This document shows positions 50,991-59,005 of a stretch of DNA of 64,000 nucleotides, piece after piece. The DNA is from Asaia lannensis NBRC 102526 (GTDB taxonomy: Bacteria; Pseudomonadota; Alphaproteobacteria; Acetobacterales; Acetobacteraceae). Below the pieces are notes generated by a model. That model searched no databases, was not told where the DNA came from, and saw only the letters and a list, made by a program, of their open reading frames with translations. Position 1 is the first letter of the stretch. The number at the start of each line of letters is the position of its first letter. Location: positions 124,001 through 188,000 of the forward strand of contig NZ_JAMXQU010000005.1 in assembly GCF_024054035.1 (NCBI RefSeq), written 5' to 3'. Both the position numbers and the translations under genes were made by a program.

Positions 50991-52640
50991 TCAGAGCGTG
51001 ATTTTGCCTTGACGGTGCAGTGTCTGAATGCGGTCTGCCGTGCGGAGCGCGATCGCTGTTATGGTCAGTGAGGGATTGACCCCGCCGACCGTCGGAAAGA
51101 CCGAGCCATCGCAGATCCACAGATTGGGCACATCCCAGCTTCTGCAATCGGCATCGACAACCGAGTTTTCAGCGGAAAATCCCATTCGTGCCGTACCTGC
51201 CAGATGGTTCGTATCATTCTCCTGACGCCAGATATCCTGTGCCCCGATGAGTTCGAGAGAGCGCTGCATTTCCCCCAGGGCATGCTGGATCATGACCTTG
51301 TCATTGTCCTGCCATCCATAGGTGATGCGCGTGATCGGCAGACCGTACTGGTCTTTTTCATCGGCCAGCGTCACGCGGTTCTCCATGCTTGGCAGCATTT
51401 CGCCCACCATCTTGAGACCGACCTGATGATTGTAGTCCATCATTTTCTGGCGCAGCGCCTCGCCCCACATCCCGCGCGAGGAAGAAACGGCAGAGGACCA
51501 TTCGAGCGGAAGAGGTCCCTGGGCCATCCAGCAATAACCGCCGAAAAAGTCCTTTTTATCTTCGTAATTCCAGTGTTCGGTGATGGTGAGCGAAGGCGGT
51601 CCCTTGTTCCATCGCACCATTTCCTTCATGCGGCCATAGACGGCCTGATTGGACTGCACCATCAGATTGCGCCCGACATAGCCGGAGCGGTTGGCTAACC
51701 CGTCAGGGAAACGGTCTGTGGCAGAATTCAGAAGCAGGCGCGGTGTTTCGATGGCATAGCCCGCAACGATAACCTGCTTCGCACGCTGGAAATGCCATTT
51801 GCCCTCACGATGATAATGCACACCGGTGGCGAGCCCTCGTGAGTCGGTTTCAATGCGGCTCACCATGGCCAGATCGCGTATTTCCGCTCCGGCTTTCAAC
51901 GCGCGCGGGATATAGGTGACCAGCTGGCTCTGTTTGGCGTTGGTGGAACAGCCCACGCGGCAAAAGCCACGATAGACGCAAGACGGTGAGTCGCCTCTCG
52001 GGGCCGACACCGTGGCGAGCGGTGTCTCCGACCAGCGATACCCCATGGCTTCGGCACCGCGTGCCAGCCACTCACCCGCACTGCCGATTTCATGTGCACG
52101 ATAGGGATAGCGCGGGCGTCTGGGCCCCCAGGGATACGAGACCGGCCCCGCAATGGCGAGGTCACGCTCTGCCTTGTCGTAATAGGACCACATCTCACGC
52201 CAGTCGAGCGGCCAGTCCACGGCATAGCCGAGTTTCGTGCGTGCCTGAAACCACTCGGGTCGAAAACGCAACGAAACCATAGCAAAATGAACCGTCGATC
52301 CACCGACGGCCTTGCCACTGTTGTTGCTTCCCATCTTGATGGGATTGGCGCCGTCCACAAGGCGTTCGTCGGTCCAGTAGAGCTGGCTCTGGCTTGTTTC
52401 ATCCGAGGCGAAATCCTCGAGCGGTCGGAAATACGCACCGGCATCGAAGCCGATGACCGAATAGCCCATTTCAGCCAGCCGCGCGATAAGAGGGCCACCC
52501 CCGGCACCGGTTCCGATTACGACGAAGTCCACAGCCTCGTTCTGCGCATATTCGCGCATGGGAACCCATGCGCCTTTGCGGAAAACGTCGGGCGCACGGC
52601 CGTTCGTGGCCCGCGGCGTGTACAGGGGATTATCGGACAT
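50991..52640 (-). CDS. GMC-family flavoprotein, gluconate-2-dehydrogenase-large-subunit-like
   Basis: 549 aa. FAD motif DFVVIGTGAGGGPLIARLAEMG, then GGSTVHFAMVSLRF. A three-cysteine block CVYRGFCRVGCSTNAKQS is typical of the gluconate-2-dehydrogenase alpha group. C-terminal HLAGTARMGF and GGVNPSLTITAIALRTAD hold the GMC active-site His/Asn. No signal peptide is seen. ATG 52640 overlaps the upstream subunit-3-like gene by 11 bases. It is the last gene of an operon with a TPP enzyme and a duplicated membrane protein. Unlike the dehydrogenase at the start of the window, no cytochrome c gene accompanies it. Substrate unknown. Confidence 0.87.
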   Translation of the reverse strand: MSDNPLYTPRATNGRAPDVFRKGAWVPMREYAQNEAVDFVVIGTGAGGGPLIARLAEMGYSVIGFDAGAYFRPLEDFASDETSQSQLYWTDERLVDGANPIKMGSNNSGKAVGGSTVHFAMVSLRFRPEWFQARTKLGYAVDWPLDWREMWSYYDKAERDLAIAGPVSYPWGPRRPRYPYRAHEIGSAGEWLARGAEAMGYRWSETPLATVSAPRGDSPSCVYRGFCRVGCSTNAKQSQLVTYIPRALKAGAEIRDLAMVSRIETDSRGLATGVHYHREGKWHFQRAKQVIVAGYAIETPRLLLNSATDRFPDGLANRSGYVGRNLMVQSNQAVYGRMKEMVRWNKGPPSLTITEHWNYEDKKDFFGGYCWMAQGPLPLEWSSAVSSSRGMWGEALRQKMMDYNHQVGLKMVGEMLPSMENRVTLADEKDQYGLPITRITYGWQDNDKVMIQHALGEMQRSLELIGAQDIWRQENDTNHLAGTARMGFSAENSVVDADCRSWDVPNLWICDGSVFPTVGGVNPSLTITAIALRTADRIQTLHRQGKITL

Positions 52641-53295
52641 GACGGTTTTCCTTGCGCGTCTTCTCGACTGTCCCGGGAGTTGCTTCGATCGCTTCCCATG
52701 GGTCACGCCGGTCGTTCTGCAGGCGCACGTAGCCACGCGGGCTGGCGGGGCCGCCAAACCCGATTTCGCTCCAGGCGGTGGGATGGGCGTAATAGGCGGA
52801 GAGAATATCGGTCAGTACATGGCCGTTGAAAAAGAGCTGCATCTGTTCGGCGCTCCAGCCTGCGTGCCCCAGATTTCCATCGGCCGCCTCCTGCATCAGG
52901 GATTCCTGTAGTTCCGGCGGTAGCGCATGGAAACTTCTGTCATGGCGTGCAAGCGCCTCCGCTTCGAATACGGCCAGACCGTTTTTCCAGGTGTCGCATT
53001 GAGGTGGCAGCGCCGCGTCGCGAAAACCGGGGCGTGTGTCGTGAAGGAGTTTCTGATCCACATAGGCGGCCAGTGGCACGGGCGAACGGTCGCGCGGCTG
53101 CGGCATGATCCGGTCGCATAATGCGCTCAGTGTGCGCCATTCCAGTGCATTCAGATAGCGGGCCTCTCGCGGAACGGCGAGACGCGCATCGATCACGCGC
53201 CGTGTCGCCTCGTTCCATGAAGGGGAAAGACGCTTGTTGAGAACGTCATAGCCGGGATAACGCTCTGTCGCCGCGTTCGTGGTCACGTCAGACAT
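52630..53295 (-). CDS. Gluconate 2-dehydrogenase subunit 3-like protein
   Basis: 221 aa. It matches the subunit-3 (gamma) family: LNALEWRTLSALCDRIMPQP, then VAAYVDQKL-type VPLAAYVDQKLLHD and the C-terminal GHVLTDILSAYYAHPTAWSEIGFGGPASPRGYV. In known gluconate dehydrogenases this subunit supports folding and export of the flavoprotein and carries a Tat signal. Here the N terminus (SDVTTNAATERYPGYDVL) has none. ATG 53295 was chosen because GGAGG lies 9 bases before it. It overlaps both neighbours by 8-11 bases, so it forms a translational chain. Confidence 0.85.
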   Translation of the reverse strand: MSDVTTNAATERYPGYDVLNKRLSPSWNEATRRVIDARLAVPREARYLNALEWRTLSALCDRIMPQPRDRSPVPLAAYVDQKLLHDTRPGFRDAALPPQCDTWKNGLAVFEAEALARHDRSFHALPPELQESLMQEAADGNLGHAGWSAEQMQLFFNGHVLTDILSAYYAHPTAWSEIGFGGPASPRGYVRLQNDRRDPWEAIEATPGTVEKTRKENRHVR

Positions 53296-54265
53296 CGCTG
53301 TCATCCTCCATCAGATCGAGGGCAGCGAGCCCGGCCAGTGCCAGGCCGGTAAAGGCGGGTGGCGCGGGAATGGGCGGGCCATTGAGCAGGTTCTGCTGGA
53401 TATTGCGCCATCCATCCATATCGCGACCGACGCCAATGGCATGAAAAACAGTGCCTGAAACACCCATGATGGCTGTTGCGCGCAACCACCAGCGCGTCAG
53501 ACGCCGGTCGGTGCGTGTATCGCCCAGTGATGCGTTGGTCAGCGCAGCCGCCGCTGCTGGCGGCATGGTGACGGGCAGCATCATGAAAGGATCATGAAAG
53601 CTGCCTCTGAAATGCAGCAATCCGGCTTCTGCTGTCGTGCCGATCATACCTGCGCCGGAAACGGCACCGATCACGCGTCCGGCAGGCAGACCGAACAGGC
53701 GCGGTGTTTCACCTGCAGGCGTGTCGCGCACGCGCTCGGAGAAAAAGCCGAGCAATCCCGAAAGGCCGATAGCCATCGGTGCGCCGAGCGGTGCACCGTA
53801 AAACAGGTTCTGCCAGATGAACCGACCCGGTTTCTGGATGACGTTCCAGAAATGGAAGCCTGTTCCCGCCAGTCCTACAAGGCCGGTCAGCGCATAGATA
53901 CTATCGCGCGCCCAATGCGACTTTGCGCGTTTGTCGGCCGTTCCATGCGCGGAAACCGCCAGCGCCAATGCCGATGTCACCAGGGGCGTGTACATTGCCT
54001 TGTTTTCGAAGCTGCCGCGATAATGTTCCACGGCACTGTCGAAAAGCACGGAGGCAGCCAATGTGCCTGCTGAGCGATTGAGTCGCCGCGCCGCCAGATT
54101 GGCCCGGTCTGGCGATGGAGCGCGCTCTGTTGAAAGGGCGGGGGGCAGAGCTTTCCTGCTCATGCGCCCACCGCGTGCTGCCGCGGCAAAGGCAGCCGCC
54201 GTCAGGGCGCCGGTCAGGCCGAGAGCCCAGCCGACGGCCCCGCGTGGGCCGTTATAACGCGCCAC
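53288..54265 (-). CDS. Internally duplicated membrane protein with paired histidines
   Basis: 325 aa, about eight hydrophobic segments. Two halves repeat: SAVEHYRGSF (78-86) matches AGLLHFRGSF (214-223), GLAGTGFHFW (131-140) matches GVSGTVFHAI (268-277), and WQNLFYGAPLGAP (151-163) matches IQQNLLNGPPIPAP (289-302). Histidines H81/H218 and H138/H275 occupy equivalent places, so they could bind heme or a quinone. I do not recognise a named family. It starts with GTG directly after the TPP-enzyme stop (TGAGTG) and overlaps the subunit-3-like gene by 8 bases. A membrane anchor or electron acceptor for the GMC/TPP enzymes is inferred. Confidence 0.75.
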   Translation of the reverse strand: MARYNGPRGAVGWALGLTGALTAAAFAAAARGGRMSRKALPPALSTERAPSPDRANLAARRLNRSAGTLAASVLFDSAVEHYRGSFENKAMYTPLVTSALALAVSAHGTADKRAKSHWARDSIYALTGLVGLAGTGFHFWNVIQKPGRFIWQNLFYGAPLGAPMAIGLSGLLGFFSERVRDTPAGETPRLFGLPAGRVIGAVSGAGMIGTTAEAGLLHFRGSFHDPFMMLPVTMPPAAAAALTNASLGDTRTDRRLTRWWLRATAIMGVSGTVFHAIGVGRDMDGWRNIQQNLLNGPPIPAPPAFTGLALAGLAALDLMEDDSDV

Positions 54266-56059
54266 TCAGGACTTCTTCGCAGGAAGGAAGGTCGCAAGCA
54301 TCTCCTTGGCCGATCCACGAATGACATCGAGCAGTTCAGGCTCGGTCGGCAGGGACGACAGGAACGCTTTCGCCTGTTGCAGGGTGATATGAGGCGGTAG
54401 CGGGGGCACGTCGGGATCGGTTCTGGCTTCGAGAATGACAGGACGATCTGCGCTCAGAGCCTCTTCCCACGCGCCGGCGATCTGATCCGGGTGATCGACC
54501 AGAATGCCCTTGAGGTCGAGGAGTTCGGCATATTTGTGATAGGGGAAATCGGGGATGGACTGTGTGGCAGTCGTCTTGCCCTCGCCGAGCTGGACGCGCT
54601 CTTCCCATGTCACCTGATTGAGATCCTGGTTATTGAGAACCAGAACGATCAGTTTCGGATTTTCCCACTGCTTCCAGTATTTGGAAATCGTGATCATGAC
54701 ATTCAGTCCGTTCATCTGCATCGCGCCATCGCCCATGCAGGCAATGACGGTGCGTTCGGGGAACGCCATTTTGGCAGCGACCGCATAGGGCGTGCCAGCC
54801 CCCAGAGAGGCGAGGCCGCCTGAGAGGGATGCTTTCATTCCACGGCGTATTTTGATGTCACGCGCAAACCAGTTGGCGACCGAGCCTGAATCGGCGGTGA
54901 TAATGGCGTTTTCCGGCAGGAGAGGGGACAATTCCCAGAACACGCGTTGCGGATTGACCGGATTGGCATCTGTCATGGCGCGTGCTTCGAGCACCTTCCA
55001 CCATGTCTCGACCTCTTTTTCGATTTTCTCGCGCCAGCTGCGATCGCTCTTGCGCTGTAAAAGCGGGATAAGGGCGCGAAGGGTGGCCGTGCTGTCTCCC
55101 TGCAGGCAGACTTCCATGGGGTAGCGAAGAGACAGATTGGACCCGTTGATGTCGATCTGCACCCCACGTGCCTGACCCGGATCGGGCAGAAACTCGCTAT
55201 AGGGATATGCGGAGCCGACCATCAGGAACGTATCGCATTCCTTCATCAGGTCCCAGGACGGTTTGGTGCCGAGCAGACCGAGCGATCCGGTTACATAGGG
55301 CAGTTCGTCCGGCACGGCTGCCTTGCCAAGAAGAGCCTTGGCGATGCCTGCGCCGAGCAGATCGGCAATGGCGATCAGTTCGTCCGTCGCATCGAGCGCG
55401 CCCGCGCCGGCCAGTATGGCGACTTTCTTGCCCGAATTCAGGATTTCGGCTGCGGCCTGCAATCCGTGCATTTCGGGCACGGGGCTGATAACGGTCTCGC
55501 CAATGCCGGTATGGGTAAAGCCATGCGCCACAGGCGCGTCCTTGTAGGGCAGTTCCTGCAGGTCATTGGGAACGATCACGATCGTTGGGGCGCGCTTGTC
55601 GCGGGCAATGCGAACGGCACGGTCGATGGCATGGCGCATCTGCGTAGGCTCGGTAACCGTGACGATATATTCGGACCCGACATCCTTGCAGAGCGATTGC
55701 AGATCGACTTCCTGCTGGTAGTTCGAACCCATACAGGTGCGGGCCTGCTGCCCCATGATGGCAACGACACCGACATGGTCGAGCTTGGCGTCATACAACC
55801 CGTTGAGCAGATGGATGGCCCCCGGCCCGGATGTTGCAAAACACAGACCGACCTGACCCGTGAATTTTGCATGAGCCGATGCCATGAAGGCGGCCATTTC
55901 CTCATGGCGAACCTGCACATATTCGATGCGCCCTGCATCGATCTCATGCTGCAGTGCTACATCGATGCCGCCTGCACCATCGCCGGGATAACCATAGGCT
56001 CTTTTGAGTCCCCATTCCTGGAGGCGTTTCCACATGAACTCGCTGACATTCATGGACAT
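54266..56059 (-). CDS. TPP-dependent pyruvate-oxidase-like enzyme
   Basis: 597 aa. The three ThDP domains are visible: the activating glutamate in VRHEEMAAFMASAHAKFTG (about residue 53), a central FAD/nucleotide-like domain, and the cofactor motif MGDGAMQMNGLNVMITISKYW ending VLVLNNQDLN. The family is pyruvate oxidase/acetolactate synthase, closest in layout to PoxB-type enzymes that turn pyruvate into acetate and CO2 and pass electrons to quinone. No signal peptide. GGAG lies 11 bases before ATG 56059. It heads the four-gene operon and is divergent from a lactate-dehydrogenase-like gene, which fits lactate to pyruvate to acetate. Confidence 0.85.
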   Translation of the reverse strand: MSMNVSEFMWKRLQEWGLKRAYGYPGDGAGGIDVALQHEIDAGRIEYVQVRHEEMAAFMASAHAKFTGQVGLCFATSGPGAIHLLNGLYDAKLDHVGVVAIMGQQARTCMGSNYQQEVDLQSLCKDVGSEYIVTVTEPTQMRHAIDRAVRIARDKRAPTIVIVPNDLQELPYKDAPVAHGFTHTGIGETVISPVPEMHGLQAAAEILNSGKKVAILAGAGALDATDELIAIADLLGAGIAKALLGKAAVPDELPYVTGSLGLLGTKPSWDLMKECDTFLMVGSAYPYSEFLPDPGQARGVQIDINGSNLSLRYPMEVCLQGDSTATLRALIPLLQRKSDRSWREKIEKEVETWWKVLEARAMTDANPVNPQRVFWELSPLLPENAIITADSGSVANWFARDIKIRRGMKASLSGGLASLGAGTPYAVAAKMAFPERTVIACMGDGAMQMNGLNVMITISKYWKQWENPKLIVLVLNNQDLNQVTWEERVQLGEGKTTATQSIPDFPYHKYAELLDLKGILVDHPDQIAGAWEEALSADRPVILEARTDPDVPPLPPHITLQQAKAFLSSLPTEPELLDVIRGSAKEMLATFLPAKKS

Positions 56060-56329: not shown

Positions 56330-57532
56330 ATGTCCATGACGGCCAAGCGGCGTTTGCACGATATCTATCGGCTTACTGATTTCGAAAAGGCGGTGAAGCG
56401 CTATCTGCCAAAAGCGGTTTATGAGTACGTGCGCAACGGTGCCGGGTCGGAAATCAGCCTGCGTCGCAACAGGGCGGTTTTTCAACGCTATCTATGGCGT
56501 CCCTATCGTTTGCGTGACGTCTCGTCTCTGGATACGAAAATCACGCTGTTTGGAGAGACCTACGATCAGCCCTTCGGTTTTGCGCCCACGGGTGGAGCCG
56601 CCATGACCCGCTATGACGCCGACCGTATCGAGGCTGCCGCAGCGCGACGTCATAATCTGTTCTATGCCCTGTCGGCCAATTCGCTGACACCGCTTGAAGA
56701 AATCATACGCATCAATCCGCGCAGCTGGTTTGCGGCGTACCTGCCCAGCGATATGGCGGTGATCGACGGTATGATCGATCGTGTGCAGAAGGCGGGTTAT
56801 CCTGTTCTTCTCATAACCTGCGACGTGCCTGTCCCAGCACAGCGCATTGCGGAAACGAAGGCCGGATATTCTATGCCTATCCGGCCTAATCTACGTTCCA
56901 CTCTGGGGGGGATTGTCCATCCGGGCTGGACGTTCGGTACGCTTGGGCGCACGATCCTGCGGGACAGGAACCCCAGGATCGTGAATATACGCCCCAAGGG
57001 CGGACCGGGACTTTTTTCCAGTGAAATCGCAGCGGTCGGTGGATCTCCCCATTTTACCTGGGATCATATCCGCCATATCCGTGCACGCTGGAAAGGCAAA
57101 CTGGTGCTCAAGGGTCTTTTGCGCCCCGAGGATGCGGCCGAGGCTGCCAGTATCGGGGTGGATGGTATCGGCATATCGGATCATGGCGCGCGCCTGCTGG
57201 ATTCGACGATAGCGCCACTCGAAGTACTGGGAGAGATGAAAAAAGCGGCCGGTTCCATGGCGGTTCTTGCCGATAGCGGTTTTCGCTGCGGCGGGGATGT
57301 TCTCAAGGCCATGGCACTGGGGGCCGATGCCGTCATGCTCGGCCGTCCATTCCTCCAGGCCTGCGCTCTTGCGGGTGGGGCAGGGCTCGACAAAGCCGTA
57401 TCAATCCTGAAAACCGAAATCAGTCGTGATCTCGCTCTTCTTGGGGTCACATCGATCGAGGCGCTGGATCGTGACCTGCTCAAGGATCTCGGTGAAATGC
57501 ATTCTGCAGAACGCGCACCGGATTACGTCTGA
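56330..57532 (+). CDS. FMN-dependent alpha-hydroxy-acid dehydrogenase (L-lactate dehydrogenase-like)
   Basis: 400 aa. TIM-barrel flavoenzyme: LTDFEKAVKRYLPKAVYEYV, FGFAPTGGAAMTRYDADR, the active-site SDHGARLLDSTIAP (catalytic His; more usual is NHGGRQLD), and DSGFRCGGDVLKAMALGADAVMLGRPF. It oxidizes L-lactate or another 2-hydroxy acid and reduces the quinone pool. GGAGG lies 6 bases before ATG 56330. The divergent pyruvate-oxidase-like gene and a downstream catalase support lactate oxidation; if the enzyme used O2 it would make peroxide. Mandelate or glycolate are alternative substrates. Confidence 0.88.
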   Translation: MSMTAKRRLHDIYRLTDFEKAVKRYLPKAVYEYVRNGAGSEISLRRNRAVFQRYLWRPYRLRDVSSLDTKITLFGETYDQPFGFAPTGGAAMTRYDADRIEAAAARRHNLFYALSANSLTPLEEIIRINPRSWFAAYLPSDMAVIDGMIDRVQKAGYPVLLITCDVPVPAQRIAETKAGYSMPIRPNLRSTLGGIVHPGWTFGTLGRTILRDRNPRIVNIRPKGGPGLFSSEIAAVGGSPHFTWDHIRHIRARWKGKLVLKGLLRPEDAAEAASIGVDGIGISDHGARLLDSTIAPLEVLGEMKKAAGSMAVLADSGFRCGGDVLKAMALGADAVMLGRPFLQACALAGGAGLDKAVSILKTEISRDLALLGVTSIEALDRDLLKDLGEMHSAERAPDYV

Positions 57533-57578: not shown

Positions 57579-57886
57579 ACTCCGCTTTCGTGCTGTTTTA
57601 AGGCAATACAGACATGGCCGTTACGCCCATAGCGGCGCATTGCCATCTTTGTTCATCATATCTTTGATCAGGGGGTCAGATCTCTCATTCGGCAGGTTTA
57701 TAGCTCGATGTCCTGCCGTGACACTGTCGGTCAGAAGCGCTCTCGCGTCACGAAGGATCGACATCGGATCGTCACCTCCGGGCTTTCTGCCGTTTCACGC
57801 AACCAGTCCGGGTGCGATGCGCTTTTGAGAGTGGTGAGGTCGCCGACCTCTATTCTTCGTTTTCACTCGATCTGTGGAACTGGCCG

Positions 57887-59005
57887 ATGCGTTCTCCTGT
57901 TGCTTATCGTTCCGATATTGAAACGCTAGAGGCCAGCGAGGAGCAGGTCAAAAGCAAGCTGCTCGCGACGTTTCGGAAAATCATAACGGCCACACGGCGC
58001 GATCTCGGTCATGCTTCGCGTGGCGTGCACGCGAAAAGTCATGCCCTGCTCGATGGCAGGATCCATATTCCTTCAGGTCTGCCGCCGGAGCTGGCCCAGG
58101 GATTGTTCGCCCATCCCGGGTCTTTTCGCGTAACCGCGCGTTTATCTGCCATACCGGGCGATCCATTGCGCGATGCTGTATCCGGGCCAAGAGGTTTCGC
58201 GCTGAAAATACACGATGTGCCCGGCGCGTTGCTCGACGATAATCGCGGCGTCGCCGTTCAGGACTTTCTTTTTGCAAATGGGACGGTTTTCGGTGCCCCG
58301 GATGCAAAAGGGTTTCTGCAGATGCTGCGTGTTCTCGCATTGACCACAGATCGTGCCGAGGGAGCCAAGGCTCTGCTCTCACGCAGCCTGCGTTTCTTAC
58401 AGCGTGTTCTGTCTCGTTTTGCGGCGCGTAGTTCAGCGCTCGATGCTCTTGGTGGTTTTGCCCCGACTCATCCGTTGGGTGACCGCTTTCATTCTCAGGT
58501 GCCTGTGCGTTTTGGAGCCTATATCGGCAAGCTCGATCTGGTCCCTGAATCGGAGAGCTTTCGACGGCTCACCGGTCGGATGATCGATATCGATCATGAT
58601 CCGATTGCAATCAGGCGAGCGATACAGCGTGTCATGGCACAGGAGGGCGGACGCATGAGCCTGCGTGTGCAGCTTTGTCGCGATCTGGAGAAGCAGCCTG
58701 TCGAGTCTGCAACTGTCGAGTGGAACGAAACGCTCAGCCCGTTCCAGACGATTGCGAGCATCGAATTTCCCCCTCAGGTCAGCTGGAGTGAGAGCAGATC
58801 AAGGGAAATCGACGATAGTCTTTCGTTCTCGCCCTGGCATGGGCTGGTTGCCCATCGACCTCTGGGCAATATCATGCGCGCAAGACGCGCCGCCTATCCG
58901 TTTTCCTCACAACTGCGTGGCAGGCTGAACGGCTGTCCCATGCGCCTTGCCATGTCTGCGACGGACGATCAGCGGACCGCGAGAGAGAACGGCGCATCAT
59001 TGTAA
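57887..59005 (+). CDS. Catalase-family heme protein
   Basis: 372 aa from ATG 57887, preceded by GTGGA; an in-frame GTG/ATG earlier (57812) is possible. The catalase fold is clear: RGVHAKSHALLDGRIHIPSG with the essential histidine, GLFAHPGSFRVTARLSAIPGD, SGPRGFALKIHDVPG and VQDFLFANGTVF. It lacks the long C-terminal domain of classic catalases and matches the SrpA-like small group. It should remove or use peroxide. It lies 354 bases after the hydroxy-acid dehydrogenase on the same strand and may detoxify its by-product, though it could have its own promoter. Confidence 0.85.
   Translation: MRSPVAYRSDIETLEASEEQVKSKLLATFRKIITATRRDLGHASRGVHAKSHALLDGRIHIPSGLPPELAQGLFAHPGSFRVTARLSAIPGDPLRDAVSGPRGFALKIHDVPGALLDDNRGVAVQDFLFANGTVFGAPDAKGFLQMLRVLALTTDRAEGAKALLSRSLRFLQRVLSRFAARSSALDALGGFAPTHPLGDRFHSQVPVRFGAYIGKLDLVPESESFRRLTGRMIDIDHDPIAIRRAIQRVMAQEGGRMSLRVQLCRDLEKQPVESATVEWNETLSPFQTIASIEFPPQVSWSESRSREIDDSLSFSPWHGLVAHRPLGNIMRARRAAYPFSSQLRGRLNGCPMRLAMSATDDQRTARENGASL

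What the first reader, a model, noticed from the sequence alone, without database searches (positions are those of the whole stretch)
53288..54265. Clear internal duplication in the orphan membrane protein
HYRGSF/HFRGSF, GTGFHFW/GTVFHAI and QNLFYGAPLGAP/QNLLNGPPIPAP recur 137-139 residues apart. The protein may have arisen by fusion of two copies, giving a pseudo-twofold membrane fold with paired histidines. This is visible directly in the translation.
Basis: seen in the sequence. Interest (0 to 1): 0.6.

Follow-up and report, generated by a model that had tools for sequence, protein, structure and literature searches.

The report
Duplicated membrane partner of sugar-type dehydrogenase
This unnamed bacterial membrane protein really is two fused copies of one four-helix unit, half-size relatives of it still exist, and it always travels with a flavin dehydrogenase whose membrane link to respiration it probably provides.

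Summary
The two halves of the 325-aa protein align with a score no shuffle reaches (0 of 15,000), at an offset of 137-139 residues. The decisive test, single-repeat relatives, succeeds. Two Deinococcus plasmids and a Frondihabitans plasmid carry a 155-157 aa protein in the same operon position. A profile built from those three alone matches all 52 complete double proteins in exactly two places. Two histidines per repeat (H81/H138, H218/H275) are invariant in 41 two-repeat relatives and kept in all 91 repeats extracted. "Orphan" is wrong. The family is absent from Pfam and NCBIfam but lies in a conserved operon (PoxB-like TPP enzyme, often an enolase-type enzyme, this protein, gluconate-2-dehydrogenase subunit 3, GMC oxidoreductase). 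In 200 Acetobacteraceae genomes, the 28 with an intact copy are exactly the 28 with the operon-type subunit 3. The operon was described in Asaia bogorensis in 2015 (PMC4596401); the passages I read there do not mention the duplication. Best reading: a membrane subunit passing electrons from a cytoplasmic GMC dehydrogenase to the respiratory chain, in place of the usual triheme cytochrome c. The partnership is shown genomically; its redox role is inferred. AlphaFold models were too poor to test the fold.

The parts
53288..54265 (-). two-repeat integral membrane protein, 325 aa (P0001), GTG start directly after the TPP-enzyme stop
   Evidence: no Pfam, NCBIfam or PDB relative
53747..54094 (-). 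repeat N (residues 58-173), four predicted membrane segments
   Evidence: self-alignment; single-copy profile; hydropathy
53330..53683 (-). repeat C (residues 195-312), four predicted membrane segments
   Evidence: self-alignment; single-copy profile; hydropathy
54008..54025 (-). HYRGSF, residues 81-86 (invariant H81, R83)
53846..53866 (-). GTGFHFW, residues 134-140 (invariant H138)
53777..53812 (-). QNLFYGAPLGAP, residues 152-163
53597..53614 (-). HFRGSF, residues 218-223 (invariant H218, R220)
53435..53455 (-). GTVFHAI, residues 271-277 (invariant H275)
53360..53395 (-). QNLLNGPPIPAP, residues 291-302
54266..56059 (-). TPP-dependent enzyme, PRK08273 equivalog, pyruvate oxidase/PoxB-like; first gene of the operon
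   Evidence: NCBIfam NF006129 E 1e-296; PoxB 3ey9 E 7e-79
52630..53304 (-). gluconate-2-dehydrogenase subunit 3 family protein, no signal peptide; overlaps the membrane gene
   Evidence: PF13618 E 1.6e-21; N-termini
50991..52640 (-). GMC oxidoreductase, likely start ATG 52640, overlapping the previous gene; C-x5-C-x3-C motif, no signal peptide
   Evidence: PF05199 and PF00732; nearest solved 6a2u and 7w2j; overlap and motif

Best explanation
The protein is a fused tandem duplicate of a four-helix membrane unit. The single unit still exists and presumably works as a homodimer; in Pseudomonadota the two copies are one polypeptide, a pseudo-dimer with both halves in the same orientation. It acts as the membrane-embedded subunit of a cytoplasmic flavin dehydrogenase made of the neighbouring gluconate-2-dehydrogenase-subunit-3 protein and GMC oxidoreductase. 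It replaces the triheme cytochrome c subunit of classical acetic-acid-bacterial dehydrogenases and hands electrons to the quinone pool through a site built on the two invariant histidines of each repeat (bis-histidine heme b or a quinone site). Shown: duplication, single-copy relatives, invariant histidines, strict genomic partnership, no heme-c subunit and no export signal. Inferred: complex formation, electron transfer, cofactor.
For: Duplication. Single-copy relatives in the same slot. Invariant H81, H138, H218, H275 in 41 of 41; both kept in single-copy proteins. Partnership: the 28 of 200 Acetobacteraceae genomes with an intact membrane gene are exactly the 28 with operon-type subunit 3 (E<=1e-75, next best E 1.6e-32), with matched copy number in three two-copy genomes (set comparison). 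Subunit 3 usually lies directly downstream. Minimal core membrane + subunit 3 + GMC without TPP or enolase genes in Frondihabitans. GMC closest to the catalytic subunits of FAD-glucose and fructose dehydrogenase; the former's partner is a triheme cytochrome c (PMC5979317). The same Asaia genome has that classical three-gene set with three CxxCH, whereas the operon-type subunit 3 and GMC proteins show none and the window protein has no cysteine. Operon co-expressed with the cyo-2 quinol oxidase in Asaia bogorensis (PMC4596401).
Against: Charge distribution puts the histidine-bearing loops outside (mean basic residues: L0, L2, L4, L2' together about 17.7; His-bearing loops about 7.6), while the dehydrogenase lacks signal peptides and should be inside; a route across the membrane would be needed. 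No similarity to any known cytochrome b or quinone-binding family. No usable structure model. Operon partnership does not prove a complex: a substrate transporter would show the same pattern.
Confidence: 0.55

Rival explanations
1. It is a transporter (for example of a sugar acid) that feeds the pathway encoded by the operon; the duplication parallels SemiSWEET to SWEET.
For: Parallel duplicated membrane unit with single-copy homologues, as in SemiSWEET/SWEET (PMC7162841); pathway enzymes and sugar-active genes (enolase-type enzyme, SDR, GH15) lie nearby.
Against: No similarity to any transporter family; strict pairing with subunit 3 and GMC even where the TPP and enolase genes are absent; invariant histidines with adjacent arginine look more like cofactor ligands than a transport path.
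Confidence: 0.22
2. It is a structural anchor that holds the dehydrogenase, and perhaps the PoxB-like enzyme, at the membrane without cofactor of its own.
For: Same genomic pairing; PoxB-type enzymes are peripheral membrane quinone reductases (established knowledge).
Against: An anchor would not need two invariant histidines and GAP/GPP loops per repeat, placed on the side predicted to face away from the enzyme.
Confidence: 0.18
3. The similarity of the halves is a composition artefact of a hydrophobic, Gly/Ala/Pro-rich protein.
For: None found.
Against: 0 of 15,000 shuffles, local shuffles included; single-copy profile hits two places in 52 of 52 complete proteins.
Confidence: 0.01

Closest known systems
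Asaia bogorensis 'pyruvate oxidase operon' Asbog_02184-02187 (PMC4596401)
   Same: Same four genes in the same order; [quoted passage not shown]
   Different: The passages read do not report the internal duplication, the single-repeat relatives or the invariant histidines. That paper calls the operon unique to A. bogorensis and leans to a periplasmic location; here it is found in several phyla and the partner enzymes lack signal peptides.
Three-subunit FAD dehydrogenases of acetic acid bacteria and Burkholderia (gluconate, sorbitol, fructose, FAD-glucose dehydrogenase)
   Same: GMC catalytic subunit and subunit-3 partner.
   Different: No triheme cytochrome c and no Tat signal; an eight-to-nine-helix duplicated membrane protein instead; iron-sulfur cysteines altered to C-x5-C-x3-C.
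SemiSWEET / SWEET
   Same: Single-unit protein in some bacteria, fused double unit elsewhere, parallel orientation.
   Different: Four-helix unit, unrelated sequence, dehydrogenase operon.

Membership tests
Three-subunit GMC-type membrane dehydrogenases (GADH/FADGDH/FDH type) | GMC catalytic subunit | tested here: met
   E 1e-51 to 6a2u, 3e-44 to 7w2j; Pfam GMC_oxred N and C
Three-subunit GMC-type membrane dehydrogenases (GADH/FADGDH/FDH type) | small subunit of the gluconate-2-dehydrogenase subunit 3 type | tested here: met
   PF13618 E 1.6e-21
Three-subunit GMC-type membrane dehydrogenases (GADH/FADGDH/FDH type) | triheme cytochrome c subunit | tested here: not met
   no CxxCH in the subunit 3/GMC proteins checked; the window membrane protein has no cysteine; no such gene annotated next to subunit 3/GMC in the operons fetched
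Three-subunit GMC-type membrane dehydrogenases (GADH/FADGDH/FDH type) | Tat signal on the small subunit, periplasmic enzyme | tested here: not met
   N-termini of subunit 3 and GMC in 13 loci; L019 GMC and L021 subunit 3 were read as fragments or with a frameshift there
Three-subunit GMC-type membrane dehydrogenases (GADH/FADGDH/FDH type) | 3Fe-4S cysteines in the large subunit | tested here: inconclusive
   C-x5-C-x3-C in 13 of 13, but the CC pair of 6a2u is CV/CI
Bis-histidine cytochrome b membrane anchors | paired conserved histidines in or at the ends of membrane helices | tested here: met
   two per repeat, 41 of 41
Bis-histidine cytochrome b membrane anchors | sequence or fold similarity to a known cytochrome b family | tested here: not met
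   no sequence match; the fold could not be tested
Bis-histidine cytochrome b membrane anchors | bound heme | not testable with these tools
   needs spectroscopy
SWEET/SemiSWEET | MtN3/saliva domain, three-helix unit | tested here: not met
   no Pfam match; four membrane segments per repeat

The most novel reading that the evidence does not exclude
A previously undescribed family of integral membrane redox subunits, one or two copies of a four-helix unit with a bis-histidine cofactor site, that couples cytoplasmic GMC flavin dehydrogenases to the quinone pool in place of cytochrome c.
Probability: 0.35. Interest if true: 0.65.

Novelty: new variant of a known kind. Interest (0 to 1): 0.42.

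Why it matters
It gives a clean case of membrane-protein evolution, with single-unit and fused forms in the same operon slot, and a testable candidate for how a whole subfamily of flavin dehydrogenases without cytochrome c reaches the respiratory chain. The family has no Pfam or NCBIfam model although it occurs in Pseudomonadota, Deinococcota, Acidobacteriota and Actinomycetota.

Tried and rejected
Pfam, NCBIfam and PDB sequence searches of the protein and of its alignments: nothing significant. Viral contigs: no relative. AlphaFold of the full protein (pLDDT 41.9) and of one repeat with both halves stacked (53.3): too poor to use. Independent duplication in Granulicella: its halves group with single-copy proteins, but AU tests reject neither a common nor an independent origin (p 0.33-0.41). 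Single-repeat forms inside Pseudomonadota: none among complete genes in 398 phylum-wide and 200 family genomes. Apparent single or odd matches that proved to be decayed or cut genes: G451, G477, Embleya; G483 carries an internal stop; G375 is a truncated match.

Full report
Observation. The frame lies on the minus strand of window 53288-54265 and encodes 325 residues. Aligning the first 180 residues with the rest gives a BLOSUM62 local score of 104; none of 15,000 shuffled pairs, including shuffles within 10- and 20-residue windows that keep local composition, exceeds 76. The two best self-diagonals are offsets 137 and 139. Identity is 18 of 81 on the first diagonal and 12 of 26 on the second, and the DNA of the 81 codons is only 38% identical, so the event is old.

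Family and surroundings. The nearest relatives are in Asaia (87-88% identity) and the window genome groups with them. No Pfam, NCBIfam or PDB entry matches. tblastn against plasmids finds relatives in Komagataeibacter, Bradyrhizobium, Nitrobacter, Rhizobium, Burkholderia, Caballeronia, Paraburkholderia, Methylocystis, Croceicoccus, Deinococcus, Granulicella and Frondihabitans, annotated as hypothetical or putative membrane protein where annotated. Nearly all annotated neighbourhoods have the order TPP-requiring enzyme, usually an enolase-superfamily enzyme, this protein, gluconate-2-dehydrogenase subunit 3, GMC oxidoreductase. In Asaia the four genes abut or overlap and the enolase-type gene is absent. 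So the protein is not an orphan.

Single-repeat relatives. In two Deinococcus plasmids and one Frondihabitans plasmid the slot before subunit 3 holds a protein of only 155-157 residues. A profile made from those three proteins alone matches 56 proteins in the collected set: 52 in exactly two stretches, the three single-copy proteins in one, and one truncated gene (L052) in one. In a tree of 49 repeats all N-repeats form one clade (100/99), all C-repeats another (99/98) and the single-copy proteins a third (99/88), so all two-repeat proteins other than Granulicella's are consistent with one fusion. The Granulicella double protein lies with the single-copy group; whether it duplicated independently cannot be decided (AU p 0.33-0.41). 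Only doubles were found among complete genes in Pseudomonadota.

Anatomy. Averaged hydropathy over 41 sequences shows four membrane segments per repeat plus an extra N-terminal one in Asaia, and the profiles of the two halves correlate best at offsets 137-141 (r 0.62-0.67). Four segments separate equivalent points, so the halves have the same orientation. H81, H138, H218 and H275 are invariant in 41 of 41, as are R83, R220 and GAP/GPP loop residues. Both histidines are kept in all 91 repeats, single-copy ones included. Basic residues are concentrated in loops L0, L2, L4 and L2', which places the histidine-bearing loops outside. AlphaFold could be run only on four close sequences and gave unusable models; their low-confidence helix order is the same in both halves.

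Partnership. In the same sample of 200 Acetobacteraceae genomes the membrane protein was found in 32, intact in 28. A profile of the operon-type subunit 3 shows a sharp gap between E<=1e-75 and E>=1e-32; the 28 genomes above the gap are exactly the 28 with an intact membrane gene, with two copies of both in three genomes. None of the four genomes with a broken or partial membrane gene has an operon-type subunit 3 above that gap. Where gene order changed (G384, G408, G511), the TPP gene lies between the membrane gene and subunit 3, still in one cluster; in G368 the two genes are on different contigs.

Mechanism. The GMC protein is closest to the catalytic subunits of FAD-glucose and fructose dehydrogenase. 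The former enzyme has three subunits, the third a triheme cytochrome c, with a 3Fe-4S cluster as first acceptor of FAD electrons (PMC5979317). The same Asaia genome also has a classical set of subunit 3, GMC and a cytochrome with three CxxCH. The operon-type subunit 3 and GMC have no CxxCH, the window membrane protein has no cysteine, and neither subunit 3 nor GMC has a recognisable signal peptide in the loci checked, so the enzyme is probably cytoplasmic. All 13 operon GMC proteins keep C-x5-C-x3-C at the cluster position. The membrane protein therefore occupies the place of the electron-accepting subunit. In Asaia bogorensis the operon was described as a pyruvate oxidase operon and is co-expressed with the cyo-2 quinol oxidase genes (PMC4596401). 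From this I infer a membrane redox subunit using the histidine pairs. The weak point is the predicted outside position of the histidines. A transporter and a passive anchor are the main rivals.

Verdict. Duplication and fusion: essentially certain. Partnership with the GMC dehydrogenase: strongly supported by genomics. Redox function and cofactor: inferred.

Noticed in passing
window 56330-57532; L013:11017-12291; L017:3565-4668: An alpha-hydroxy-acid oxidase (FMN_dh) gene lies next to the operon in Asaia, Methylocystis and Croceicoccus, a possible hint to the substrate class.
   Followed up: partly
L018:6535-6933 and L021:6532-6921: In both Deinococcus single-repeat operons a VKOR-like gene (Pfam VKOR E 4e-5, below cut-off; tested on the L018 copy) with a CxxC motif sits directly before the single-repeat gene; VKOR enzymes are quinone-linked.
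   Followed up: partly
L012:4121-4498, L017:4676-5053, L018:10040-10426, L021:10079-10465: A gene annotated as sensory rhodopsin transducer recurs beside the operon in Nitrobacter, Croceicoccus and two Deinococcus plasmids.
   Followed up: no
L055, L058, L051, L059: Decayed copies of the operon: remnant fused to the TPP gene (G477), frameshifted (G451), internal stop (G483), and a fragment on an Embleya linear plasmid.
   Followed up: partly
window 57812-59005: A 397-aa frame with no Pfam match next to the operon; not identified.
   Followed up: no
L120:2256-4456 (G000:C11): A second subunit-3 and GMC-like pair in the Asaia genome, E about 1e-27 to the operon-type subunit 3, with no relative of the membrane protein beside it.
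   Followed up: partly
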